Shown in pieces: positions 8,552 through 60,265 of a stretch of 64,000 nt of DNA. The position numbers were made by a program, and so were the translations under genes. The notes below the pieces were generated by a model that did not search any database, was not told where the DNA came from, and worked only from the letters and a program-made list of their open reading frames with translations. Source of the DNA: Polytrichum commune (taxonomy: Eukaryota > Streptophyta > Polytrichopsida > Polytrichales > Polytrichaceae); assembly GCA_950295325.1 (NCBI GenBank), contig OX485808.1:34309180-34373179 (forward strand), written 5' to 3'. Each line of letters opens with the position of its first letter. Positions within the stretch are counted from its first letter, which is position 1.

Positions 8552-11500
8552 TCATGAATTATGCTTTGCAATATTCTCAAATTTAAATGTCACCAATGAA
8601 GTCAAGTTGCCCAATGTCTTTGGTACTTCCTTCAAGCTCGAGCAACCATCCAAGTCCAATGTCACCAATGAAATCAAGTTGCCCAATGTCTCCGGTAATT
8701 CCTTCAAGCTCGAGCAATAACACAAACTCAATTCTTCCAATGAAGTCAAGTTGCCAAATGTCTCCGGTACTTCCTTCAAGCTCGAGCAACCCATCAATTT
8801 CAATGTCATCAATGAAGTCAAGTTGCCCAATGTATGAGGTACTTCCTTCAAGCTCGAGCAACAACTCAAGTCCAATGTCACCAATGAAGTCAAGTTGCCC
8901 AATGTCTCCGGTACTTCCCTCAAGCTGAAGCAATTACACAAGTTCAATGTCACCAATGAAGTCAAGTTGCCCAATGTCTCCGGTACTTCCTTCAAGCTCG
9001 AGCAACCCATCAATTTCAATGTCATCAATGAAGTCAAGTTGCCCAATGTCTCCGGTACTTCCTTCAAGCTCTTGCACCATCCCAAGTTCAATGTCACCAA
9101 TGAAGTCAAGTTGCCCAATGTCTCCGGTACTTCCTTCAATCTCTTGCAATCATCCAAGACCAATGTCACCAATGAAGTCAAGTTGCCCAATGTCTCCGGT
9201 ACTTCCCTCAAGCTCGAGCAACCATCCAAGTCCAATGTCACCAATGAAGTCAAATTGCCCAATGTCTCCGGTACTTCCTTCAAGATCGAGCAACCTATCA
9301 ATTTCAATGTCACCAATGAAGTCAAGTTGCCCAATGTCTCCGGTACTTTCTTCAAGCTCTTGCAACCATACCAGTCCAATGTCACCAATGAAGTCAAGTT
9401 GCCCAATGTCTCCGGTACTTCCTCCAAGCTCGAGCAATTATACAAGCTCAATGTCACCAATGAAGTTAAGTTGCCCAATGTCTCAGGTACTTCCTTCAAG
9501 CTCTTGCACCATCCCAAGTTCAATGTCACCAATGAAGTCAAGTTGCCCAATGTCTGTCGTACTTCCTTCAAGCTCTTGCACCATCCCAAGTTCAATGTCA
9601 CCAATGAAGTCAAGTTGCCCAATGTCTCAGGTACTTCTTTCAAGATCGAGCAACGACTCAAGTTCAATGTCACCAATGAAGTCAAGTTGCCCAATGTCTC
9701 CGGTAATTCTTTCAAGGTTCTGCAACCACCCAAGTCCAATGTCACCAATGAAGTCAAGTTGCCCAATGTCTCCGGTACTTCCCTCAAGTTCCAGCAACCA
9801 CCCAAGTTCAATGTCACCAATGAAGTCAAGTTGCCCAATGTCTCCGGTACTTCCCTCAAGTTCCAGCAACCACCCAAGTTCAATGTCACCAATGAAGTCA
9901 AGTTGCCCAATGTCTCCGGTATGAATTCCAATGCCTTACAATTAACTAAGGTAAGGTATTGTAACATCTTAAGGGTTCCAATTTCAAGTGGAAATTGTTG
10001 CAAAAGCACACACCTCTCCATCTCCAACACACGCAATTGTTTGAATGGAATGAAAAATGATGGTTGCAACTCTTCCATTTTTTCTCCTCTATATTGGCTA
10101 GAGCTCATGCTTATCCGCATCCACCTCAATTTACTCGCATTCTTCATTGTTTTGTAAAAGTAATCCAAACTCTCACAATCGTTGATATGCAAGAGCCTTA
10201 TGTTTGCCATATCCAAACTTGTAATCATGTCATAATTACAATGAGATCCAGCCACATGAAGACCTTCCACGTTTTGCATCATCTGCATCAACCATGCCAT
10301 AAATCATTGTTTACGGCACTCTTTTAAGTGTGTGGATTTTTTCATATTCTCTCAATTGATTTAAAAACCCTCGAACATAAACATTTATTTCCTTATATTT
10401 TTTCTACAAAGAATCTTATAAGTGCAAACTCAATTTCATCAAAATTGGACGCTTTATGATTATGAAACTAGACAAAGATGATGGATATATTCATTTACCA
10501 TGCTCGCATTAGATTTGGTGGGCTCAAACTCATCCAAATTCCAAATTCTTTGTCCTCCAATATGTTCTTTGCATGCTATCATACGTCCCATGTCACGTAA
10601 ATGATCATGCATTGTCAACATCCCATCCGAATCCATTCGCACAAGACTTCGGTCCATGAGATTCAAAAGTGCAGAATGTGCGTTACTATCATCACAATCC
10701 CATATTTTCAACGCCTTCTCTTCTTCCATCCCTTGCTTGAGAACATCCCGACAAAAAAAACAAGCAATGTCCAAAAACATGTTTTTCTCTTCTTCATCCA
10801 AATTATCGTAGCTTATCCTCAACGTTCTCCATATCCTTTCGTTGTCCCAACTACCACCAAGGCATTGTCCCCTCTGTAATCTTCGCAATGCTTGTTGCCA
10901 TACCCTAAGCCTTTGAACTCCACACAAATAACCTCCCAATACTTCCAAGCTCAAAGGCAGACCACCACATGCTTCGATGACTTTGTTGGCAACTATTTCA
11001 AATTGCGGCCCTTGAGGTCGTTGTTGTAAGAATGCATGCTTGTAGAATAGCTCATTTGCTTGATCTTCCTCCAATAACTCCATGTCCATCTTTCCATTGT
11101 GTGAGATACAAGTTGTTTTTAAGTCTTGCCAATTTCGGCTTGTCGCAATGATCTTGCTACCGTTAGCAAACTTCCACTTAGATGAAACTAGCCCATGGAG
11201 TTGTTCTTGAGAGGCAACATCATCAAAGACAACAAAGACTTTCTTCCTCTCAAATATCTCTTGTAAGTACTTGAACCCCTCTTCTCTGGTGTTTATGTAC
11301 CTCTTGTATTTGAGATCCTCCAACAATTGTCTTTGTATATCTAAGATGTTTTTGGAGTCTCTCATATTTGCCACAAAGCTTGTTGCTTCAAAGCCTCGAT
11401 GCACACGATGAAGAATGGCCTTTGTCAAAGTGGTCTTTCCACTTCCACCCATCCCGACGATGCCTAGAATTTGATTGGATTCTAGTTGAAATAAGACGTT

Positions 11501-13561
11501 TGAGATTTTCTTATCAATATTGACAAAGTGAACCGGGAGTGACGGTAATGAATGTGTGGACCGCACTTGTGATGGAAGTATTCGGTTTGCCCATGACAAT
11601 GGTGCAAAAAGCTGAAAACCCCATACATAAAAAATTTGATATTAGATATTGCTTTGACATGTAAGTTACAATAAATGCAAAAGAGTGTGGTTTCTATGAG
11701 TGCTATCAAAGTACCTTGATTATCTCATTTAAAAGAATACGCTTTTTCTTTTGATTAGATTTCAAATTTGTATTTGGATCCAATATTTGATGAAAATGGA
11801 TACAACAAGATAAATTGATTATATTTGTTAGCCCATTTGAAAGTTGATGTGAACTAATTTCTAAACCATTTAATATATTGGTAGAATTAATACCTTGGTA
11901 TGAATTTGACTTGTATGTTGGGCCTCATTAGCTTCTCTCCCCTCCAAATTCGGTGCCCTCCAAAAGCGTTTGCACAAATACATGACGTCCTGAGGCAAAT
12001 TTGAAATCCTTTGAAACAAGGTTGTCTCATTTTCCACCTTTTGATTTTTAAGTGCAACATTTCCCCGTAAAATGGAACTTCTCAATTCTTTTAATGTTGT
12101 GCAAATCTCCTTGAACTTGGGTCTCTTTGTTCGGTCTAATGACCAACATTCCTTGATCAAGGACACCAAAGCTTCCGGACAATCATCAGGCACCCATGGT
12201 CTCTCACCTGACGTTAGCCTTGTAGGAAGATCATGACCATTGCCTTCAAATGGTTGGTTTCCTGAGAGTATAGTTGCACACATCACACCAAAACTGTATA
12301 CATCGGCTTCATGTGCATTCACTTTTTCCATAAAAGAATATATCATGTTTTCTCTCTTTCGTTTGTTGTTCTGGAATAACTCTGGTGCTTTGTACAACCT
12401 CGTCCCAATACCTTGGCTTAATTTCTCAGAAATGTTGCTATGCGCATCCGTTTTTGAAACTCCAAAGTCGGCCAACTTCACATTCACATAGTTGTCCTTG
12501 TGCAATTCGTCCACCATGATTTTATGCACCAATACATTGGCAGGTTTTAAATCCCGATGTGCAATTTTCTTCTCATGTAGATAACTCATGCCCTTTGCAA
12601 TTTGTAAGATGATGTCTATAGCTACTTGAATTGGGAAGGGTGTTTTTGTTCCGCCATTTGATACCTCCTCCATCAATGCCTCCAAGCTTGTGTCTAGAAG
12701 CTCCATAGCAATGAAACATTTGCGTTTCTCTGGTTTTCGGCCACAACATATGAATTTCACGACATTTGGATGATTGGAACTTGCAAGTATGCCTGCCTCT
12801 TTCTTGAAGTTTTTGTCCCCATCTTCCATATCACCCAAAATTTGAACCTTCTTTGCACAAGGCAAACCAAACCAAGTTGTTTTCTCTACATTGCCACACG
12901 CACCTTCTCCAAGTGGGCTTGAGCCTCGCCAACCCAATCGTGCATCAACCTCCACATGTTGTCCACCATTCACATAGTTTCCTTGATTGTCATATCTTTT
13001 CAACAAGTATGCCGCAATCGTTGACTCTTCGCTAGCGACCTTGTTCTTAGAGGATGAATGTGTGGGTTCTACAGTTGCTTGTAATCGCCTCACCAATTCG
13101 AGATGATCTTCAACTCCCGATTCACTCATGGTGCTTAGTGAAAAACTCATATCATCTTGAAATTGGTCCAACTGTCCAACACATTGGCCTTTTAAATGTC
13201 GATAAATATCATCATGACAATATTTGAGATCCATAAACAAGTCTTGGAACGCCTCTTCATTGTGGATTTGGAGCAATGCTACATGCCACCATTTCTCACC
13301 ATAACACTCTTGTACCAACAACTTGGCCCTTTCAATAACTAGAAACAACTCCTTCAAGAGCAAGTCACAATTGTTAAGAAACTCATTTGTACGGGAGAAA
13401 ATAATATCTATGGTTCTTGTGAAATTTTTGAGCGTTTGTGCAAGACATGTGCATTGGCGTTGATTCAATGCAAACTTGGCACCCCCCTCATGCACAATTT
13501 GTTGTATGTAGTCATTGTTGAACATACAAAGCCCCAAGATATTGGATTGATTAGCCATCAT
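8552..13561 (-). CDS. Helical domain-kinase-NB-ARC-LRR immune receptor (PNL type)
   Basis: I join three exons: 13561-11894, 11611-10499 and 10282-8552. All introns are GT-AG and phase 0, giving about 1503 residues. Residues ~10-150 form a helical, cysteine-containing domain resembling the MCAfunc/HeLo four-helix folds. The kinase (~210-490) keeps LGEGACGNVEK (217-227), a lysine at 237/238, HRD (335-337), DFG (365-367) and APE (392-394), so it should be active. NB-ARC follows with GMGGSGKTT (609-617), VFVVFDDV (681-688), GGLPL (772-776) and MHD (890-892), then 18 LRR units (1052-1483). The family is an intracellular immune switch: LRR sensing, ATP/ADP exchange in NB-ARC, signalling through the N-terminus. 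The start was chosen at ATGATG just after an acceptor-like TATGCAG, so an upstream 5' UTR intron is possible. The last acceptor (TGATGCAG) is weak and is the least certain junction. No break is seen. Confidence 0.88.
8615..9910 (-). repeat. 18 x 72-bp coding tandem repeat (LRR units)
   Basis: Each 72-bp unit encodes LGNLTSLVTL, four to six variable residues around a conserved cysteine, then LKEVPET or a close variant. The backbone residues are almost invariant and the DNA is nearly identical even at silent sites. Units 1 and 2 are identical in protein, as are 6 and 12, and 13 and 16, which suggests block duplications. A partial 19th unit ends the protein. Because the unit is a multiple of three and lacks stops, long open frames also run on the other strand. 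Confidence 0.95.
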
Positions 13562-14890
13562 ACCCTGCATACAAAACAAAAAAAGGTAAGAACTAGAGTC
13601 ACGTCGCATCCACAAATTCAATGCCACATCACAGAAAGGAAAAGACAACATCATTTGGCATAATTTGTATACATATTGCTAGACTTTTTTTATGTTTGAT
13701 GCCCACTTGGTGTCATTGTTGTGTTGTTTTCAAACAATACTTTATATGGAACACACCTAGCATATCAACATCTTAAATTAACACATAACTTGATAGTGTA
13801 CATTGAACTAATATGTCAACCTTGAATTTCACTATGAATCATCACATGGCATTTATTGACAATTTGGGTTTGCAATATACAATACATAACATTGCATTGT
13901 CACAGCTTCATGTCTACAACATAAAAATGAGCCCAAGATGAATAACATGCTTAAACCCTTGCAGATTTAGGTGCTTTATGTATCACTAAATTACTATAGA
14001 CTTCATATGACGTCCAGCATGAGACAAATACCATTTTATTGTGCACACCCAATACGGTTGGAGTACCATGAGGTGCAAATAAGCTCTTCCTAAGTGGATA
14101 TGATATAAAATTCCTTGCTTATCCAAACTTTGTAGAGAATTTTTCAAATCTACTTACGATGTCTTGTAAACCTAAAACATATATAAGAAAGCACATAAAG
14201 CTATGTGTGACACATAAATCAGAGTATTGCTTTGTTCACCACAATTATAAGAGATAAAAATTCCAAGTTCAAATTTATAAAGTCTAATGATTTGTTTCTT
14301 GTATGTGAATAATTTCAAATTTTTAAAATATCCACATCAAATTACTATGGCCTCAATAAAATCATCACTAATCAAAATGTTGTCAAATTCAAGTTTGGAG
14401 GGACAAAAGATGAAAACAATATAACCTATCAGGTGGTGAAATTGAAGTGGAATTTCAACAAGGATTCACTGTTCATCACAACCACAAACCCACTCTTATC
14501 CCTAACGCATTGAGAATCATAGCCAACAAGAAAATATGAGCATAACCCTTGTTATCAACAATGTGATTGACAACTACAAAGAGCAAATAAATCAAATTCC
14601 TTTATTTAACCATTCAAAACAACTCTGGACGAATCAACAATTGGAATTTTAATATTGTGGGTGTTTAACAATACATTGAAGTTAATAAGCACCTTCAATG
14701 TTAACACTAGACATTGAATGAGTAATAGTAAGTCAAGTCAACCTTCCTTTCCTCTATAACTGATCACAGCGGCCCTCCCAAATTCCAATAACAATTCAAC
14801 CTAACATGGTGTCTGTATTTTGAGCACATAGTCCAAATCTCAGCAAAACCCATGTCCTTGTAGTGATTGTTTCAAAACTTTAGCCTTGTT
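13562..14890. other. Intergenic, 5' side of receptor gene
   Basis: AT-rich DNA holding the presumed promoter of the receptor. I could not pick out a convincing TATA box or transcription start. 14760-14850 carries a short reversed family-D segment (TTTTGAGCACATAGTCCAAA). Nothing else is recognised. Confidence 0.45.
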
Positions 14891-14899
14891 ATGTATAAC

Positions 14900-15999
14900 G
14901 TAAATATAGATGTGTAATCTAGATGAGCGACGATATGAGGCCACCATACTTGTGCGTCGGCCACCAACTCACCAAGTTTACCTTTTTTGGAACGGCAAGT
15001 TCGATTCACAAGAGAGGGACCATGTGAGTTTTCCCATGTTTTCCTTCGCTCTCAAAAGAAAATGGGGTTTTAAGGTGAAATATAAGTCTTCAGGATACAT
15101 TGATAAGTCTAAATACAGCGACACGTGCTCTCCAATAATTAAGTCAAATTCCATGAGGACAACGTTCGCCACCAGAGGACATGGTGACTATTATGTTGGT
15201 TTCAAAGTTATGCATCGCAAAGAAGCAGGGATCGTTTTTCTTCACCAGCCAAGATATATCAATGAAGTGCTCAAACGGTTTCACATGATAGATTGCAACC
15301 CCATTTCAACACTTGTTGGCCCTCACGTTCATTCGTCCATGCAGTCAAATGACTCTGAATGCAATGCACCAATTTTAGTTCCCTATAAGGAAGTCGTTGA
15401 CTGCCTAATGTTTGCATCCCTGTTCACTTGCCCAGACATTGTGCACATTCTGGCTAAAAATGCCGAATGTCCTTGACAGATGCACTGGACAGATGCACTG
15501 GACAGCTATCAAACGAACTTTTCATTATCTCAAAGGGACAACCGATTACGGTTTGATATATAAACAATGTGTTTGTGCACCTATACTTGCACGTTATTGC
15601 AACTGGGACTACCGAGGTGACATTGATAGCAGCATATCACAAACAAGATATTTGTTCGAACTCGAGGACAGCTTAATTGTTTGGATCTCACAATCGCAAA
15701 AGTGCACAGCTGTAAGTACTACAGAAGCATAATACATTGCAGCTTGTGAAGCCACGGAAGAAGCTGTCTGGGTCAGGTGATTGCTCGGGACTTTCGGTAT
15801 CAACCTCACCAACCCAACATTGATTCGTAATGATAATCAGTCTGCTATACGTCGTGTGAAGAATCCTGAATTTTACAAGCGTACTAAGCACGTGGACATC
15901 CAATCTCACTTTATACGAGATCAGTTTCAGGATAAGGTCATAGACCTTGAATATATTCCAACAACGTTACAAATTGCTGATATTTTGACAAAGTCTTAA
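14900..15999 (+). mobile_element. Ty1/copia retrotransposon fossil (3' part of pol)
   Basis: The 3' part of a copia-type polyprotein is visible: a piece of reverse transcriptase followed by the RNase H region, ending in the characteristic IADILTKS motif. Gag, protease, integrase and the 5' part of pol are absent, and no long terminal repeats could be recognised on either side. The copy is broken, with several disruptions, and looks old. The reading stops next to the duplicated R block at 16073. Confidence 0.85.
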
Positions 16000-26386: not shown

Positions 26387-27700
26387 GGGACGGTTTACAC
26401 TACGGTGGAGAAGGCCTCCGGTTGGTCAAGAATGCTTGGCCAAGACATGGTTATATGAGGCAAATGGTGGATGTGCTGGAGAAGAATTAAAGGCAATAAA
26501 ATATTTCTTAAGGAGTCTTGACCGGTTGAAGTCTAAACACCTAGAGGAGAAGTTTAGCGGAGAAGTCCACCGGAGAAGTCCACCGGTGAAGAGAAGTTCA
26601 CCTAATGGTGAAGATTTTTTGTGATAAAAAACCATAATTCTCTACATTCACATTGTATCAAAAGATTTCAACAAGAATTGTGTTCATAAGAATTGTGTAA
26701 TATAATGTTCAATTTTATTCAAAAGATAATGAAAATTGCCAAATTGCCAATTGTCAAGTTTGGCCCATGTAGGAAATAAATGTCTCCTTGGGTGTTTAAG
26801 AATAAAGAGGGGAAAACCCATACACATTGGACAAAACACTACTCTTTGGTATTATTTAAGACATGCTCTCCTCTTAATCATCCTCATCAATTTCTCTCTT
26901 CTTATCTTTGATCTTCAAGCATGGATAATCGAAGAAGAGAGATTTTGTGCTCTCTTATGATCTTTATGGTTTTGAAGTATTTTATCATTTCAACTATGGC
27001 GATACAAAAAACCATCTTGTATCACCATAATGCTTCAATTATGATGATGGCATATTTTTTGTTTGGGAGCAAAGAGAGGGTGGTGTGGAAATTTGACCGG
27101 CCAAGTGGATATGTGTCACAATTTCTTCTTAGATCATATAATGCAAAAATATTCAAAGATCGTGTACGGGTGAGTAAGCCTACTTTTATTTATTTATGTC
27201 ATTTGCTTGGACCCATGTTGAGCAAGAAAGATACAAAATTAAGACTTTGTATTCCAATAGAGTGTAGAATTTCTTTGACATTGCATCGATTGGCAACCGG
27301 TGATACTTTACATACATTTGCCGATTTGTATGGTATTTCAAAGTCAAGTGCTTCAATCATAGTGAGAGAAGCTTGCCAACACCTTAGGTTTTGAAAAAAA
27401 CCAGATCTGAAATCTACAGTCCAAATCTGTTTTTGAAAATTAAATTTTTATTGAGTTGGGCTTCTCCGGCCTCTTGAGGCCGGACAAGAAACTCCTCCTC
27501 CGGAGAAGCCCAACTCCAAAAAGTGCCGCCATGTAGGCGGCCATGTCATTTTATCATCCATGAGAAAAGTTCATCACCATTGTTTTCTTCAGCTAGTGTA
27601 AACACCCACCGGTCAAGAGTTGCATTTTCGACCAATCACAATTGAGAAACGCCCTTTTTTCATGACCGGTGGACTTCTCCACCGTAGTGTAAACCAGCCC
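26387..27700 (+). mobile_element. PIF/Harbinger element, internally deleted (1314 bp)
   Basis: Inverted ends share GGTTTACACTACGGTGGAG after GGGAC (left) and GGGCT (right). TAA flanks both sides (26384-26386 and 27701-27703), the classic PIF/Harbinger target. A frame at 26921-27394 resembles the N-terminal part of HARBI1/ALP1-type transposase (the region with VSKPTFIYLCHLL and SRISLTLHRLA-like text). The DDE nuclease part is missing, so mobility would depend on another copy. Confidence 0.88.
26921..27394 (+). pseudogene. HARBI1-like transposase, N-terminal part only
   Basis: 157 codons. From about residue 82 onward (FRVSKPTF-type helix, LATGDTLHTFADLYGISKSS, VREACQHL) it matches the helix-turn-helix part of Harbinger transposases and plant ALP1 relatives. 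The reading ends where the catalytic domain should begin. Whether the first 60 residues are coding is uncertain. Confidence 0.7.
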
Positions 27701-34062: not shown

Positions 34063-36169
34063 GGGGAAGGCTAAATCCCCTGTAGTAATGCACAGCTGGC
34101 TCGCGTGTGGCCACTGTGGCACGTGGGCCCCGCGGCGGTGCCTAGCCCATTTTACCCCCTAGGATAACAAATACGGCGGTACCTCGCTAACGCCCGGGAC
34201 ACTGCGTACTGTCCCGAACCCCAGTTGCCAGAACACTGCAATGTCGGAACACTAATGTGTTTGGGCATGGCCGCTTGACTACAAATCCCATATTGAGTGC
34301 ACTTCACCTTCAAGGTCTAAAATCCAATATTTATCTCCACTTCCAATTCGTAAATAAGCAATTGATTGGGATTTCATTCCGGAAGTGAAACCATCAATGG
34401 AGCACATAATTAACTTGGAGGTCAAAAACATTACAAAATCCTCGTTAGCATTGAGGTTATAATTTTTGGGAGAAGGCTAAATCCCATGTAGTAACACACA
34501 ACTGGCTCGCGTGTGGCCTAGCCCATTTTACCCCCCAAGGGTAACAAGTACGGTGGTAACTCGCTGACGCCCGGAACATTATGCAATGCCTCGAACCCCA
34601 AACGCCGGAACACTACAACGCCAGAACACTACAACGCCGGAACACTGCAACATCGAAACACTGCAACGCCGGAACACTAATGTGTGTGGGCATGATTTGA
34701 CATGGTTGCTTGACTACAAATCCCATATTGAGTGCCCTTCACCTTCAAGGTCTAAATCCAATATATATGTGCACTTCCAATTAGTAAATAAGCAATTGAT
34801 TGGGATTTCATTCCGAAAGTGAAACCATCAACAAAGCACGTAAATAATTTGGAGGTAAAAAATGTTACAAAATCCTCATTAATATTGAGGATATAATTTT
34901 TGTGACTTATCATTTGAAATTATCTTTGTCATTCTAAAATGACACTTAAATTAGTGTGTTGATTTAATATGTACATTTTATGATATTTTAGGTAAAGTTG
35001 TCTACTTTATTCATACGCCATTCATTGTAAAATGTACTTACTGGAGTTAATTAATCATTGGAATTAATTCCAGTAAGTACATTCTATATTTAATTAGGCT
35101 CACTTAATTTGGTAATCATATTTTATTTATTTATTTAGGCTTAACTAGGATTAATCAAGATTCATTAGGCTTAATGACATTCAATCACAATTAAATAGTT
35201 TGAATGTGTATGAATACTTGTGAAAGTAGACGGCATTACCTAAAATATCATAAAATGTACATATTAAATCAACACACTAATTTAAGTGTCATTTTAGAAT
35301 GACAAAGATAATTTCAAATGATAAGTCACAAAAATTATATCCTCAATATTAATGAGGATTTTGTAACATTTTTTACCTCCAAATTATTTATGTGCTTTGT
35401 TGATGGTTTCACTTTCGGAATGAAATCCCAATCAATTGCTTATTTACTAATTGGAAGTGCACATATATATTGGATTTAGACCTTGAAGGTGAAGGGCACT
35501 CAATATGGGATTTGTAGTCAAGCAACCATGTCAAATCATGCCCACACACATTAGTGTTCCGGCGTTGCAGTGTTTCGATGTTGCAGTGTTCCGGCGTTGT
35601 AGTGTTCTGGCGTTGTAGTGTTCCGGCGTTTGGGGTTCGAGGCATTGCATAATGTTCCGGGCGTCAGCGAGTTACCACCGTACTTGTTACCCTTGGGGGG
35701 TAAAATGGGCTAGGCCACACGCGAGCCAGTTGTGTGTTACTACATGGGATTTAGCCTTCTCCCAAAAATTATAACCTCAATGCTAACGAGGATTTTGTAA
35801 TGTTTTTGACCTCCAAGTTAATTATGTGCTCCATTGATGGTTTCACTTCCGGAATGAAATCCCAATCAATTGCTTATTTACGAATTGGAAGTGGAGATAA
35901 ATATTGGATTTTAGACCTTGAAGGTGAAGTGCACTCAATATGGGATTTGTAGTCAAGCGGCCATGCCCAAACACATTAGTGTTCCGACATTGCAGTGTTC
36001 TGGCAACTGGGGTTCGGGACAGTACGCAGTGTCCCGGGCGTTAGCGAGGTACCGCCGTATTTGTTATCCTAGGGGGTAAAATGGGCTAGGCACCGCCGCG
36101 GGGCCCACGTGCCACAGTGGCCACACGCGAGCCAGCTGTGCATTACTACAGGGGATTTAGCCTTCCCCC
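34063..36169. mobile_element. 2.1-kb fold-back transposon with ~933-bp arms
   Basis: The arms 34063-34995 and 35236-36168 are exact inverted copies in every stretch I compared (paired coordinates sum to 70231), separated by a 240-bp loop. Ends read GGGGAAGGCTAAAT; the right tip has one extra C. An 8-bp duplication, TCAAATAA, lies at 34055-34062 and 36170-36177. Block P copy 2 shows the pre-insertion site near 41038-41045. Each arm holds two head-to-tail versions of one module, and an array of ~15-bp units built on AACGCCGGAACACT at about 34603-34680. The identical open frames in the two arms are by-products. No transposase. Confidence 0.92.
35028..35092. repeat. Hairpin inside the fold-back loop
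   Basis: AATGTACTTACTGGAGTTAA at the left pairs with an inverted AATGTACTTACTGGAATTAA at the right around a short AT-rich centre. This is a small secondary palindrome within the otherwise unpaired 240-bp loop. Confidence 0.7.
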
Positions 36170-41296: not shown

Positions 41297-44200
41297 CTAC
41301 CCCTGCATATTGCTAACAAAATTGATTGTACACCGAACTTTCTGAAATGTATTGTCTAGTCGTTGCCAGGTCTTCAATTGTTGCTCCCACAACTTCCTTG
41401 CCTTCTCTTGGAGTGGCTGGTGACGAATGATAGAGTCTGTATGGATCTGTAAAAGGAGGTTTCCCTTATTAGTCCTATCATTACATTGTATTGCATTGCT
41501 GAAAACCCAAGCAAGGTACGAATGACAGCGATGAGCCTGCAAACATCATACCATTCTACTCAAAAAGTAAACAACTGGACCAAACAACATCACAAAAAAT
41601 CTTATGTACTCCCAACAGCAGTTCATTCACATACCTTCAAAAAGAGTTGCAGAAGTGCCTGAATGAACTGGAAGTTCTTCATAGAAAGCAACTCTGCTAA
41701 AAGGAAGTCCAGCATCATGCCTATTTCTTGGAGTTCCTCCTCATGTATCATGACGTCGTCATCAACAATTTGCATCATCCGCAGTGAAGCATCCACTTCT
41801 GATGCAGTGATACCTTTTAGGTGATCCACTAAGCTTGAATCTGTAATCACACTTCCATTATTAGAGCCCAGAACAAAACCATGATGTGCAGCAAACCAAT
41901 GCAAATCATGCAAACCAAACGAATGCATCATGAAAATGAAACTGCGAAAATGCAAGAAAACATTCCAACTAAATGCTCCTATGTGCCCTAAAGAAGCATT
42001 CCAAAGACAATGAACAAAGAGTCCCATCAATTTCTCCCATTGCAGACAACATTTCTGAACATGATCTTTATGTGAGGAACAGATGAATCAGCCAGAAACT
42101 TACACTCTTTATCATTTGAGCATGAATGAAGATGCTCCAAAAATATGGTTTGAAAATCGCGGTGCTCAGGTTTGTTGTGCCGATTTCTTTTAGCCCCTAC
42201 TACAACTCCTGTTTCTGTTGGTCCAGTTCCACTTGGAGCTATAAACTGATGATCACCTGAAAGTGATGGTACAGTAGGTAGGAAGAAAGGGGCTTTTTCT
42301 GGCTTCTTGGGTGGTGCAGTGGGCTTGTTTCTTACCTGCAAAATGCAATTACAAGTACCCCATTACGATCTCAAACGAGTCATTTCATTGGCCCTTGGAA
42401 TTGGAGGACAACGACATCAACCTCACTAACCCTAAACGTATACTCACCATTATAAAATTCCTCGCAGGGGACAGGAGCAACACCAAACAACAACGTAAGT
42501 TAATCAAGCTCCACATGGAATAGATGAACAAAACAAGTGGCACCTTGATGATGTCCAAGTTGACAAGCCCTTTCCATTGCGTTTTTGGAAGTAAAGTGAG
42601 GGTGATAAGGCTGGGGGTTGATAGGTCCAATGCAGGGATCATCATCTCTTCATCTTCATCAGTGGTCACAGCAGGTATAGCTTCTGAAGCCACAACCTCT
42701 GGCATCTCTTCATCCTCATCCATCCCATCTTCTTTAGTAAGGCCTAAAGTTGGGAGTGCTACAACCCTCATATTATTACCGCTTCCCTTTGTTGCCGAGT
42801 CTCCCAATCCAGAATACATTAACCTGTTTGCCCTGTTTACAAAAACACGGATATTGAGTTGGATGACATTGTAAACCCCAAGCAACCAATATCGTTTGTT
42901 AATGACATGTCCTTTTACTCATATTTGGAATGTTTCCAACTGCATCTTTCAGTAAGTTGATAAGGGGAACTCACCACAAGTAGATACCGTTGCGATTAAC
43001 ATGTGAAGTGGCCAACAAGTCCATGGCTGGTGATAGAGACAAGGCGGTGACAGCGGTGCCCACATGCATTGCATCAATTTGCTTGGAGGCTACCACATCC
43101 CAGACTCGAATCGTGGAATCCATGGCGGACGACAATAACAACTTGCCATCTTCGCTGAAGCAAATATCAGTTATTCGATCAGTATGGCCATGAAACATTC
43201 TCACTAGTCGCACAGCAACCACATCGTAAAGACGGAGCACCTTGTCATCTGCTGCAATGGCAATCAAGCCTACAAAAGAAAGATACATTGTTTGAAATTG
43301 TTAGGATGTGAGCAACCTACAACCATCCATGAATAATCCAGAAAAACAAAGTGGTTCTATACAAGAACCTTACCTCCCATTGAGTACAGGACAACAATGC
43401 CACAGATTCAGGATATCCCAACACCTCAACTATTAGATCAGAGGAAGGACATGAATGTAGTAGAAATAACTGCATACCATTTCCACGGTGAGCAGCAATC
43501 TTCCCAACTGGAGACCCCACTACTAGGGTGGACTTCAATGTCCGTCTCTTAAAATCCCATACCTGCAAGAAGTATCCAATGACACCCCTTATTAATTTAT
43601 GACAAGGACCTCCATGAGGATGTGAGACCAATGACAGGATGGAGGACACAACTACTCAAAGACAAAAAGAAGTGCAAGACAACTGACCTTAAGTAGTCCA
43701 TCGTAGCCACCACTAGTGAGAAGTGTGTTTGTACTATCAGTAGCAAGTCCATTTACAGACGCATTGTGTGCACAGGAAGATCCAACAGCAGGATCTTCAT
43801 AGACACCCCTACTCAATCCTGACTGCAGATTGAATCTCTCTATTAAGCCTCCTTCTGTGCCCAACACTGCGAAATCACCACTCGCTGAAATTGCACAACT
43901 CTGTGACACGTCACAAACAAAATCAGTTCCCCCATGTTCTTTCCATCAGATGATATATATGTTCAAAAAGAAAATAATTTCATGGAAAGGTCTCAGTGAT
44001 AGAGTACTGATTTGTCATAATCAGAGGATGCACAACCCAGTGCAACCATGGAAGCTCAATTTCGAAGGATGGAATGCACAACTATGTGACCAGTAGTGGA
44101 CATAATTATATATCAAAGCTCTTGCATCTGCAAAATGGTGGTGAAGAGCTAACCTTGACAGGAGTTGGGACATCACTGGAGGGTCTAAGGACATGCTCGC

Positions 44201-52340: not shown

Positions 52341-53003
52341 TTAAGTAGTTGAGCGCACCGTGGCTTTTCCCGGGCGGCCGCACGAGAAGTCGAAGTGGGC
52401 TTCGATCCGCACCGTGTGCTTTGGAGTTGAGTGATCTCCGGTGACGAACGACGTCAACGTGTAGCCACGCGCGAGGTCGAATGAGCCCGTGCCGCCCACA
52501 ATCACCAACTTCCTCACGGGATCGAGCCGGTTCACGGCACTTTGCACTAAGAATGTGCCATTGAGGTTGCGCTCTGGCCACTGCACGTGGTAGTCTTGCA
52601 ACACGAAGATCATGGTGGACGGGGTCGTGCTAGTTCCCGTCCCGTACCAACTTCCCACGGGCTTCGACGACGGGTCGAGAGTCTCGGTGAGAGGCATGTT
52701 GTCCACGACCACCAACGAGCCAAGCGGCGAGTTTGTGATGGCGTGGACGTTGGCGTCTGGTGTGGTTCCCCGGACTTCGTGTTGGTAGAATACGATTGAC
52801 GTTGGCTTCGACCCATAATATTTCATTCCATCCTCCTCCTCATGTGCTATGATCCTTTTGTCACCGCCTTCCGCAACCGTCGACGACGTGATGATCATAA
52901 GCAACAATATTAACAATGTTGGCTTGAAGAAGACGAAGAAGGAGAAGAAAAGCGCACAAGAAGATTGCTTAATGTGATCCGATGCCCCTTCCAAAACTGC
53001 CAT
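52341..53003 (-). CDS. Dirigent protein
   Basis: Intronless, 220 residues. Residues ~14-45 are strongly hydrophobic (FFSFFVFF, LLILLLMII) and act as signal peptide or anchor. The dirigent barrel follows: SIVFYQHEVRGTTPDANVHA, LGSLVVVDNMPLTE, VGSWYGTGTS, VQWPERNLNGTFLVQSAVN, KLVIVGGTGSFDLARGYTL and a C-terminal HFDFSC. Dirigent proteins act in the cell wall or apoplast, steering stereoselective coupling of phenoxy radicals to lignans and related phenolics. GC content is clearly above the flanking DNA. A truncated relative lies at 59049-59472. Start chosen at the first ATG before the hydrophobic stretch; a TATATAA at about 53172 is a candidate TATA box. Confidence 0.93.
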   Translation of the reverse strand: MAVLEGASDHIKQSSCALFFSFFVFFKPTLLILLLMIITSSTVAEGGDKRIIAHEEEDGMKYYGSKPTSIVFYQHEVRGTTPDANVHAITNSPLGSLVVVDNMPLTETLDPSSKPVGSWYGTGTSTTPSTMIFVLQDYHVQWPERNLNGTFLVQSAVNRLDPVRKLVIVGGTGSFDLARGYTLTSFVTGDHSTPKHTVRIEAHFDFSCGRPGKATVRSTT

Positions 53004-53167
53004 GATGTAGGGTTTTGTGCGTAACTCGTTGAGAGAATAAGCCTTTAGCTAGCGTTCACTGGTTTTGCGAGGCAAACTAATTCCTTACCCCCTGCGCACA
53101 TAGCAACCAACAAAACACACTAGTTTCAATTTAGGCTTTCTGTAAGACTAGTAGATATTAAGAAGAA

Positions 53168-56999: not shown

Positions 57000-57537
57000 C
57001 ACGGGTAGATCACTCTAAGGCATTTTTGTGCACCACGTGCGGCTGGGGGTTTTTTGTTTTGGGGCTATTTACCTTCAAGGGTTGAATTAAAGCCTCCCTA
57101 TAATTACTTAAATTTCAAAAATGGCCCATTTGTTTGCACCCTTTCATTACTTATATTGTCCAAGTCACTACAATTTTTTGTACTCTATATTCCTTTTAAG
57201 TAATAAAAGCTAATCTACTTCCTAACGCAATTGACGAGTGTTGAGGGAATGCATGGAAACAAAGAAGGGTGCAAACATCCCCGTGAGTCCTAAACCCATT
57301 TACATACCATACTAAACATACCTTCTAGGATCCTTATCTTCAGCCCCTATATTAATTTTACAAAAAAATAATGGCATACGTTTTATGTCCATCTAACTTA
57401 CTTATAATGGGATTGTCTACATTTAATGGCCCCTTCATTATTTGGAATTCCTTTATAAATTTTATTTCAAATGATTTTAATCCTCTCTATATTATGCTGC
57501 ACGTCGTTTTTAAAATGCACTAAGTGATCTACCCGTG
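57000..57537. mobile_element. hAT-like non-autonomous element, copy 2 (538 bp)
   Basis: Perfect terminal CACGGGTAGATCACT and inverted CACGGGTAGATCACT. Flanks GTGAGTTT (56992-56999) and GCGAGTTT (57538-57545) form an 8-bp duplication with one mismatch. Close to the copy at 1-496, so this family moved fairly recently. No coding sequence. Confidence 0.85.
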
Positions 57538-59048: not shown

Positions 59049-59472
59049 GAGAAGTTGAAGTGAGCTATGCCCGTATTAGTCGCCAACACCAAGCCTAGTG
59101 CAAGGTAAAACGACCCGGCACCACCCACAATGGCCAATGTCCTCATGGGAAGAGCCACATTGATCACACTTTACATGAAGAATGCCCCGTTTAGTTTGTA
59201 CTTTGGCCCTTGTTTGTGGTTGTCTTGAGAGAAAGAAGAAAATGAGAGCGGTGGAGGAAGATGATTGCATGGACCCGATCCCAAACACTCTTTCCACCGT
59301 CTTTGAGGATGGATCGACCATCTCTATAAGAGCTGGTATGTTGATGACCGATAATCTACCGAGCGAAGAGTTCATGATGGGAAGGATATTTGCATCTGGT
59401 GTGGTTCCAATCACTTCATGTTCATTAAATACAAATTTTGTTGGTTTTGTATCATTTGCTCATGCTACATGA
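59049..59472 (-). pseudogene. Dirigent pseudogene
   Basis: Reads FVFNEHEVIGTTPDANILPI, then LGRLSVINIPALIEMVDPSS and, after a frame change, VINVALPMRTLAIVGGAGSF and a C-terminal HFNFSY. This is colinear with the intact dirigent gene at 52341-53003. The signal peptide is missing and at least one frameshift splits the barrel. A family-D repeat sits at the same downstream side in both, so the locus was probably duplicated as a segment. Confidence 0.85.
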
Positions 59473-59925: not shown

Positions 59926-59927
59926 TA

Positions 59928-60263
59928 GAGTTATCCTTTAACTCAGCCGGAGTTTTAGTAGGGAGTTGGTTGTTTCGCATGCATAACTTTCCATGTTCGG
60001 TAAGTTGTGGGTGCATGCTTGGAGTCAATGTGGAGGTTTGAACGAAGGACATTCCATATTGGTTCATTGGGTATCAAACTCATTTTGGCGTCTCTTGGCA
60101 TGCCAAAATGAGTTTGATACCCAATGAACCAATATGGAATGTCCTTCGTTCAAACCTCCACATTGACTCCAAGCATGCACCCACAACTTACCGAACATGG
60201 AAAGTTATGCATGCGAAACAACCAACTCCCTACTAAAACTCCGGCTGAGTTAAAGGATAACTC
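59928..60263. mobile_element. TA-flanked fold-back element, perfect palindrome
   Basis: 162-bp arms (59928-60089 and 60102-60263) appear exactly complementary, with a 12-bp loop. Ends GAGTTATCC with TA on both sides fit a Tc1/mariner-type target. Related older copies are at 6852-7249 and 1215-1531. No coding sequence. Confidence 0.88.
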
Positions 60264-60265
60264 TA

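What the first reader, a model, noticed from the sequence alone, without database searches (positions are those of the whole stretch)
8552..13561. Intact receptor joining a helical domain, an active-looking kinase, NB-ARC and LRR in one protein
Seen: all kinase and NB-ARC motifs are present and three exons join in phase. Known: kinase-NBS-LRR (PNL) receptors occur in mosses, and plant MLKL proteins pair a HeLo-type four-helix domain with a kinase-like domain. Inference: the first ~150 residues look like an MCAfunc/HeLo-type helix bundle, so the N-terminal half has the layout of a cell-death executioner fused to its own NLR switch, with a kinase that keeps its catalytic residues, unlike plant MLKLs.
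Basis: partly seen in the sequence, partly recalled or inferred. Interest (0 to 1): 0.85.

Follow-up and report, generated by a model that had tools for sequence, protein, structure and literature searches.

The report
MLKL-like module fused to plant NLR
One intact moss-type plant gene seems to join a helical domain resembling membrane-killing ones and an active-looking MLKL-related kinase to an immune receptor's switch and sensor, which could put detection and cell death in one protein; the receptor class is known, and its MLKL-like front half, if real, would explain how it acts.

Summary
On the minus strand, 13561-8552 encodes one 1,503-residue protein in three exons joined by two GT-AG, phase-0 introns: a helical N-terminus, kinase, NB-ARC, and about 18 similar 24-residue LRRs. 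Domain order and both introns fit the published moss PNL class. The listed catalytic residues are all present. The N-terminus matches RPW8, MLKL_N and DUF1221 in Pfam, all below curated cut-offs, and aligns to a plant MLKL HeLo region better than 300 of 300 shuffles, though two other tests are weak; MCAfunc gets no hit. The kinase's best single-domain PDB relatives are 6lba and 6ka4, recalled as Arabidopsis MLKLs; the NB-ARC's is the TNL Roq1. AlphaFold without relatives failed (pLDDT 42.5, 36.0), so the fold is unproven. An intact kinase on an MLKL is not unique: wheat Pm13 has one. Best reading: a PNL receptor with an MLKL-like front half, perhaps sensor, kinase and executioner in one chain. 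New variant of a known kind. No RNA-seq or plant genomes were available.

The parts
11894..13561 (-). exon 1 (556 aa): helical N-terminus, linker, kinase, C-terminal linker
13190..13507 (-). HeLo/RPW8-like N-terminal region (residues 19-124); residues 1-150 hold no proline
   Evidence: Pfam RPW8 0.001-0.0014, MLKL_N 0.002-0.004, DUF1221 0.09-0.35 over three pieces, all below cut-off; hhalign to two plant MLKL fragments above 300 of 300 shuffles; proline count
12092..12919 (-). protein kinase domain (residues 215-490), catalytic residues complete, best single-domain PDB relatives 6lba and 6ka4
11612..11893 (-). intron 1, phase 0, GT-AG, between kinase and NB-ARC
   Evidence: conserved position and phase in PNL genes per PMC3352924
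10499..11611 (-). exon 2 (371 aa): NB-ARC with TNL-type winged helix
   Evidence: Pfam NB-ARC and WHD_ROQ1; best PDB match Roq1
10283..10498 (-). intron 2, phase 0, GT-AG, between NB-ARC and LRR; weak polypyrimidine tract
   Evidence: position and phase per PMC3352924
8552..10282 (-). exon 3 (576 aa + stop): LRR domain
8586..9921 (-). tandem array, 72-bp period, 18.6 copies, coding 24-residue LRRs; amino-acid changes concentrated at predicted surface positions of the repeat

Best explanation
The gene is a moss-type kinase-NBS-LRR (PNL) receptor whose front half (residues 1 to about 500) is related to plant MLKLs: a HeLo/RPW8-like four-helix domain, a linker and a kinase, fused to a TNL-type NB-ARC and an LRR. 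Proposed working: the LRR binds or monitors a pathogen molecule (inferred); ADP/ATP exchange in the NB-ARC causes oligomerisation, probably a tetramer as in Roq1 (inferred from the TNL-type NB-ARC); the clustered, catalytically competent kinases phosphorylate each other or the linker (inferred); this frees the N-terminal helical domains to attack or permeabilise a membrane and start cell death (inferred). In animal terms, sensor, RIPK3-like kinase and MLKL-like executioner would be one chain. Shown: gene structure, domain order, catalytic residues, nearest PDB relatives of kinase and NB-ARC. Probable, not shown: the HeLo-type domain. Not shown: fold, expression, activity.
For: PNL gene structure. 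N-terminus: in the two trimmed pieces the only Pfam hits among 24,736 models up to E=10 are RPW8, MLKL_N and DUF1221, which passages in PMC10951266 and PMC9815663 treat as one group of HeLo-like domains; 0 of 10 shuffles hit any of the three. Alignment to 6lba residues 28-117 starts at residue 32 here, with NQRQC, L.EL..V, C and a Trp shared; its Smith-Waterman score is reached by 2 of 5,000 shuffles for 6lba and 33 of 5,000 for 6ka4; hhalign 26.0 against a best of 18.0 in 300 shuffles and 14.5 reversed. Kinase, whole-sequence scores: 6lba 137.1 and 6ka4 125.9 bits (133.5 and 125.1 for the kinase stretch) against 91.9 for the best B-Raf and 119.8 summed, 56.6 per domain, for tandem EGFR 9p9u, although the two plant proteins have lost catalytic residues. 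C-lobe: 101.6 to 6lba; with the 6lba C-lobe as query no PDB entry other than 6lba itself and 6ka4 exceeds 73.1. NB-ARC: Roq1 142.8 bits, next 88.5 (7crb), RPW8-NLR and CNL entries 80.6 or less. AtMLKLs are reported to serve TNL but not CNL resistance (PMC9950082 passage), which a fusion to a TNL-type NB-ARC would echo.
Against: Every Pfam hit of the N-terminus is below its curated cut-off, and one of ten shuffles reached E 0.0057 for an unrelated family, about the size of the MLKL_N hit (0.002-0.021). phmmer with the N-terminus alone found nothing in the PDB up to E=10. An HMM of the two plant fragments ranked the real sequence only third of 2,002, level with a shuffle. hhalign gives probability 26% only. 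Linker similarity is at chance level, 259 of 5,000. The kinase N-lobe alone does not favour MLKLs: 6ka4 24.8 bits, LKB1 23.2, KSR1 22.1, B-Raf 21.7, 6lba 20.8. In the C-lobe search the summed tandem EGFR entry (116.7) outranks 6lba. AlphaFold models are unusable and Foldseek found one match at E=9. For the moss PNL PpC24 all transcript variants seen by its authors stop at the end of the NBS.
Confidence: 0.5

Rival explanations
1. A PNL receptor in which the kinase is the output: it phosphorylates downstream signalling proteins, and the N-terminal helices only help it to oligomerise or reach membranes. No pore is made by this protein.
For: Catalytic residues complete. Chia 2024 report that cell death by the wheat Tsn1 kinase domain depends on its HRD motif, and that a moss kinase region gave a modest, variable response (passage).
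Against: RPW8, MLKL_N and DUF1221 similarity of the N-terminus would be unexplained. The Chia constructs ran up to the NB-ARC, so the moss one may have held a helical N-terminus too, and mild ion leakage was seen for all tested kinases but one mutant.
Confidence: 0.27
2. The front half is an integrated decoy: an MLKL-like protein fused as bait for pathogen effectors that target cell-death kinases, guarded by the NLR part.
For: NLRtracker output classed moss kinases as integrated domains, though its authors think they reflect an ancient lineage-specific expansion (PMC8559963 passage); kinases are named among integrated domains known to be effector targets (PMC11218826 passage).
Against: The domains take the place of the signalling domain and no TIR or CC stands in for it; catalytic residues are kept, which a bait need not keep; the class is large in Physcomitrium (45 of 65 NBS genes).
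Confidence: 0.13
3. A decaying or mis-assembled gene, or two genes: kinase and NBS-LRR made separately, the LRR array an assembly or slippage product.
For: No transcripts available; weak polypyrimidine tract of intron 2; retention of intron 1 or 2 stops translation after 7 or 12 further codons; PpC24 transcripts stop after the NBS.
Against: 1,503 open codons, phase-0 GT-AG introns at the class-typical borders, motifs intact, and LRR changes enriched for amino-acid replacement at surface codons compared with the rest of the repeat.
Confidence: 0.1

Closest known systems
Moss PNL (PK-NBS-LRR, kinase-NLR, Pkn-NLR) class; PpC24/PpKNL genes of Physcomitrium patens
   Same: Domain order kinase-NBS-LRR, TIR-type NBS, phase-0 introns at both borders
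   Different: The passages seen speak only of a kinase at the N-terminus; none mentions a HeLo/RPW8-like domain before it or kinship with MLKL. Whether other PNLs have it was not testable here.
Plant MLKL (PDB 6lba and 6ka4; the tool names them 'Protein kinase family protein' and 'F22L4.1 protein', their identity as Arabidopsis MLKL2/3 is recalled)
   Same: HeLo-type region then kinase at similar spacing; best single-domain PDB kinase matches
   Different: In the printed alignments both lack the VAIK Lys, the HRD Arg and the DFG Asp; no NB-ARC-LRR; reported as a family conserved across seed plants
Wheat/Aegilops Pm13
   Same: MLKL_NTD plus kinase with all key catalytic residues (passages)
   Different: No NB-ARC-LRR
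RPW8-NLR (ADR1, NRG1) helper receptors
   Same: HeLo-like N-terminus on an NB-ARC-LRR
   Different: No kinase between; NB-ARC here is TNL-type: Roq1 142.8 bits against 80.6 for RPW8-type entry 8zf0 and 79.1 for ADR1
RPW8-Pkinase_Tyr proteins of angiosperms (strawberry)
   Same: RPW8 domain fused to a kinase (PMC5039405 passages)
   Different: No NB-ARC-LRR is mentioned for them in the passages seen
Fungal HeLo/MLKL-type NLRs
   Same: HeLo- or MLKL-type N-terminal domains, and in other cases kinases, on NLRs (passages)
   Different: Repeats described are ankyrin, TPR or WD40; no HeLo-kinase pair on one NLR in the passages seen
Wheat Tsn1 (kinase-NBS-LRR)
   Same: Kinase at the front of an NLR
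   Different: Monocot kinase-NLRs sit in the CC/RPW8 NB-ARC clade in Chia 2024; here TNL-type

Membership tests
Moss PNL class | kinase - NB-ARC - LRR in one reading frame | tested here: met
   spliced frame inferred from sequence
Moss PNL class | phase-0 intron between PK and NBS (shared with HNL), phase-0 intron between NBS and LRR (shared with HNL and TNL) | tested here: met
   against PMC3352924 (passages)
Moss PNL class | NBS groups with PNL/TNL rather than CNL | tested here: met
   by similarity only: WHD_ROQ1 above cut-off, Roq1 best PDB match; no PNL sequence was available for a tree
Moss PNL class | transcript joins kinase, NBS and LRR | not testable with these tools
   no RNA data; no genome held
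Plant MLKL | HeLo domain (PF06760 DUF1221 or PF22215 MLKL_N) above curated cut-off | tested here: not met
   MLKL_N 15-18 bits against 27, DUF1221 10-13 against 25
Plant MLKL | four-helix bundle fold | tested here: inconclusive
   single-sequence AlphaFold pLDDT 42.5, 36.0; Foldseek nothing at E 0.001
Plant MLKL | sequence homology of the HeLo region to plant MLKLs | tested here: inconclusive
   for: 2 and 33 of 5,000 shuffles; 0 of 300. Against: no hit; HMM rank 3 of 2,002
Plant MLKL | kinase domain of the plant MLKL type | tested here: inconclusive
   best single-domain PDB matches but the N-lobe does not discriminate; no tree with plant kinases possible
Plant MLKL | no NB-ARC | tested here: not met
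   NB-ARC present; so not filed as an MLKL, though the front half resembles one
RPW8-NLR | RPW8 domain above cut-off directly before an RNL-type NB-ARC | tested here: not met
   RPW8 19-20 bits against 30.4; kinase lies between; NB-ARC TNL-type
MCAfunc domain | Pfam MCAfunc match | tested here: inconclusive
   no hit up to E=10, but weak hits are filtered out by the tool and the presence of the model in this library was not checked

The most novel reading that the evidence does not exclude
The moss PNL class as a whole is MLKL fused to a TNL-type NLR: a self-contained 'necrosome' in which recognition, an active kinase and a HeLo executioner are one polypeptide. It would be a Rosetta-stone fusion for the genetic link between MLKL and TNL immunity in seed plants, with the active kinase the ancestral state and the Arabidopsis pseudokinases derived. 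Retention of intron 1 would even make a free MLKL-like protein from the same gene.
Probability: 0.3. Interest if true: 0.85.

Novelty: new variant of a known kind. Interest (0 to 1): 0.6.

Why it matters
How kinase-NLRs, the largest NBS class counted in the moss Physcomitrium (45 of 65 NBS genes in Xue 2012), execute immunity is open according to the review passages seen. If their front half is MLKL-like, they may have a direct membrane-acting output, and the reported link of MLKLs with TNL resistance in Arabidopsis would have a physical counterpart. Both halves are testable with ordinary transient expression and knock-outs.

Tried and rejected
Structure prediction of exon 1 and of residues 1-198 without relatives: pLDDT 36.0 and 42.5, of no use; Foldseek on the better one: one match, USP28, E=9, disregarded. 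Search for relatives in bacterial/archaeal genomes and viral contigs: none, as expected for a plant gene, so no alignment could be built. phmmer of the N-terminus against PDB: nothing. PADLOC with the N-terminus: nothing. NCBIfam kinase and NTPase hits are far below cut-off. No tRNA and no Rfam match at gathering score in the window. Rejected: MCAfunc; simple integrated decoy as first choice; pseudogene. The long plus-strand ORF opposite the LRR (8838-10157) is taken as a by-product of the 72-bp periodic sequence, not a gene (inference).

Literature: that I found no account of an MLKL-like front on PNLs rests on ten searches of an open-licence library without preprints or most subscription journals. 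Four of the ten lists were cut at 20 papers (of 162, 35, 309 and 62 found). Of the papers listed, 13 were opened and only passages were seen: PMC11218826, PMC10952240, PMC3352924, PMC3991678, PMC10951266, PMC5039405, PMC7145615, PMC8559963, PMC9950082, PMC11850516, PMC12512272, PMC8813719, PMC9815663. Mahdi 2020, the founding plant MLKL paper, was not held and is known to me only by recall and citation. One review (PMC11850516) states that mosses lack canonical NLRs such as RPM1 and RPS4 while also listing kinase-NBS-LRR genes of Physcomitrium.

Repeat test: the five codons were chosen after seeing where variation lies, which inflates pN there. A rerun with the five codons given by the recalled LRR strand consensus points the same way.

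Full report
What is there. The minus strand from 13561 to 8552 encodes one protein of 1,503 residues in three exons: 13561-11894 (556 aa), 11611-10499 (371 aa) and 10282-8552 (576 aa and stop). Both introns (282 and 216 bp) are GT-AG, phase 0 and AT-rich. Chance is excluded by the length of the frame and by Pfam matches above curated cut-offs, exon by exon, for kinase (1e-41), NB-ARC (8e-36), a Roq1-type winged helix (5e-12) and LRRs (5e-69). Only one of the 14 AG sites between 10498 and 10200 keeps the frame for intron 2. tblastn of the whole protein against the window at E 1e-3 gave only the gene itself. There is a splice-acceptor-like sequence just before the ATG, so a 5' exon is possible. 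The RPW8 and MLKL_N matches begin near the start of their profiles (positions 16-18 and 8), which argues that little of the domain is missing.

Class. Xue et al. 2012 (PMC3352924, passages seen) describe the moss PNL class as kinase-NBS-LRR with conserved phase-0 introns between kinase and NBS (phase shared with HNL, against phase 2 in TNL) and between NBS and LRR (shared with HNL and TNL); CNLs have no such border introns. The window gene fits. Its NB-ARC is closest in the PDB to the TNL Roq1 (142.8 bits; next 88.5 for 7crb; RPW8-type and CNL entries at most 80.6), in line with the reported PNL-TNL kinship. The source genome is not held.

The N-terminus. Residues 1-150 hold no proline, and residues 1-165 are more amphipathic as helix than shuffles (6 of 1,000 reach the value). 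In two trimmed pieces Pfam returns three families up to E=10, all of the HeLo/RPW8 kind: RPW8 0.001, MLKL_N 0.002, DUF1221 0.09-0.13; the 198-residue piece adds BORCS6 at 0.049; in the whole exon they stand at 0.0004, 0.021 and 0.74. All are below curated cut-offs. Of ten shuffles, three hit one unrelated family each (best E 0.0057) and none hit these three, so a single hit of MLKL_N size would mean little; the weight lies in RPW8 and in three related families agreeing. The PDB search with exon 1 aligned residues 32-115 to residues 28-117 of 6lba, at 2.4 bits only, collinear with the kinase match. Against that fragment the Smith-Waterman score is 56 (reversed 29), reached by 2 of 5,000 shuffles; against the 6ka4 fragment 42 (reversed 33), reached by 33 of 5,000. 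hhalign against the two together scores 26.0 (probability 26%), above all 300 shuffles (best 18.0) and the reversed sequence (14.5). A HMMER profile of the two was less kind: the real sequence ranked third of 2,002, level with a shuffle; phmmer with the N-terminus alone found nothing. These tests are not independent, and shuffles do not preserve helical periodicity, so I rate homology as probable, not shown. AlphaFold without relatives gave pLDDT 42.5 and 36.0, so the fold test that would settle the point is open.

The kinase. It keeps G-loop, Lys238, Glu255, HRD, Asn342, DFG and APE. Over the whole exon its best PDB relatives are 6lba and 6ka4 (137.1 and 125.9 bits), which I recall as Arabidopsis MLKL2 and MLKL3 (the tool names them 'Protein kinase family protein' and 'F22L4.1 protein'); tandem EGFR 9p9u follows with 119.8 summed over two domains of 56.6, then B-Raf at 91.9. 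The two plant proteins have Arg for Lys, HGD or HGE for HRD and GFG for DFG in the printed alignments, so shared catalytic residues cannot explain the ranking. The signal lies in the C-lobe: 6lba 101.6, 6ka4 87.0, best other single-domain entry 67.6, tandem EGFR 116.7 summed. With the 6lba C-lobe as query, 6ka4 scores 223.2 and the next PDB entry 73.1 (Roco4), so the window kinase (101.6) scores higher against 6lba than any non-MLKL entry there. The N-lobe alone does not discriminate, and the linker similarity is at chance (259 of 5,000). PDB is a poor sample of plant kinases, so a tree is needed.

The LRRs. TRF finds 18.6 copies of a 72-bp unit at 88% matches. Nineteen unit starts were found; the eighteen complete 24-residue units (16 distinct) were compared. 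The five exposed strand codons of the recalled LRR consensus (9, 10, 12, 14, 15) have pN 0.374 and pS 0.184, the other nineteen 0.081 and 0.091; 0 of 500 bootstraps over units reverse the first relation. Codons picked by eye gave 0.458 and 0.253 against 0.052 and 0.083, 2 of 500 reversed. Units of one array are not independent, but the pattern suggests selection for diversity on the binding face and a functioning protein.

How it probably works. By analogy with TNL resistosomes, which are tetramers in vitro (PMC8813719 passage), ligand binding would gather four front halves. With active kinases brought together, phosphorylation in trans of the linker could release the helical domains to a membrane. 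The recalled plant MLKL tetramer (four chains in each of 6lba and 6ka4) would fit the same number. AtMLKLs are reported as needed for TNL but not CNL resistance (PMC9950082 passage), and this gene joins an MLKL-like module to a TNL-type NB-ARC. All steps after domain identification are inference. Chia et al. 2024 tested one moss kinase region and saw a modest, variable response, with mild ion leakage for all tested kinases except one Tsn1 mutant (passage).

What differs from what is known. Kinase-NLRs in mosses, HeLo-kinases with an intact kinase in wheat (Pm13), RPW8-kinase fusions in strawberry and HeLo-type NLRs in fungi are known apart. In ten searches of the open library (four lists capped) and in passages of 13 papers, I saw no account of a HeLo/RPW8-like domain ahead of the kinase in a moss PNL, or of an MLKL origin of its kinase. 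I could not check whether other PNLs have it; it may be a class property that goes unremarked because Pfam thresholds are not met. Hence 'new variant of a known kind'.

A caution from the literature: for PpC24, an early described moss PNL, all splice variants seen stop at the end of the NBS (PMC3991678 passage). Here too, retention of intron 2 would stop translation after 12 further codons, and of intron 1 after 7. The latter would yield a free HeLo-kinase protein. This is speculation without transcripts.

Noticed in passing
34063-35008 and 35223-36168: Perfect inverted repeat: two 946-nt arms, 100% complementary, 214 nt apart; a recent hairpin or small-RNA locus, a transposon insertion, or an assembly artefact.
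   Followed up: no
59926-60265: Perfect inverted repeat of 164-nt arms with 12 nt between, MITE-like.
   Followed up: no
41626-42918, minus strand: Two ORFs match the Utp21 WD40-associated domain (30.9 bits against a cut-off of 30.8, and 21.4 below it): probably exons of a Utp21 (ribosome biogenesis) gene.
   Followed up: partly
52344-53048 minus; 59079-59459 minus: Dirigent-like protein gene (E 2e-16) and a second ORF with similar wording (GTTPDAN) but no Pfam hit up to 0.01, perhaps a degenerate copy.
   Followed up: partly
14910-15473 plus; 26912-27391 plus: Weak, below-cut-off matches to a reverse transcriptase (RVT_2) and to the HTH of a DDE transposase: probable transposon remnants near the receptor.
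   Followed up: partly
13565-13590, minus strand: T-rich tract ending in GTATGCAG three bases before the start codon: likely acceptor of an unseen upstream, perhaps 5' untranslated, exon.
   Followed up: no
1-496 and 57000-57537: Direct repeats of 205 and 175 nt at 93% and 95% identity about 57 kb apart.
   Followed up: no
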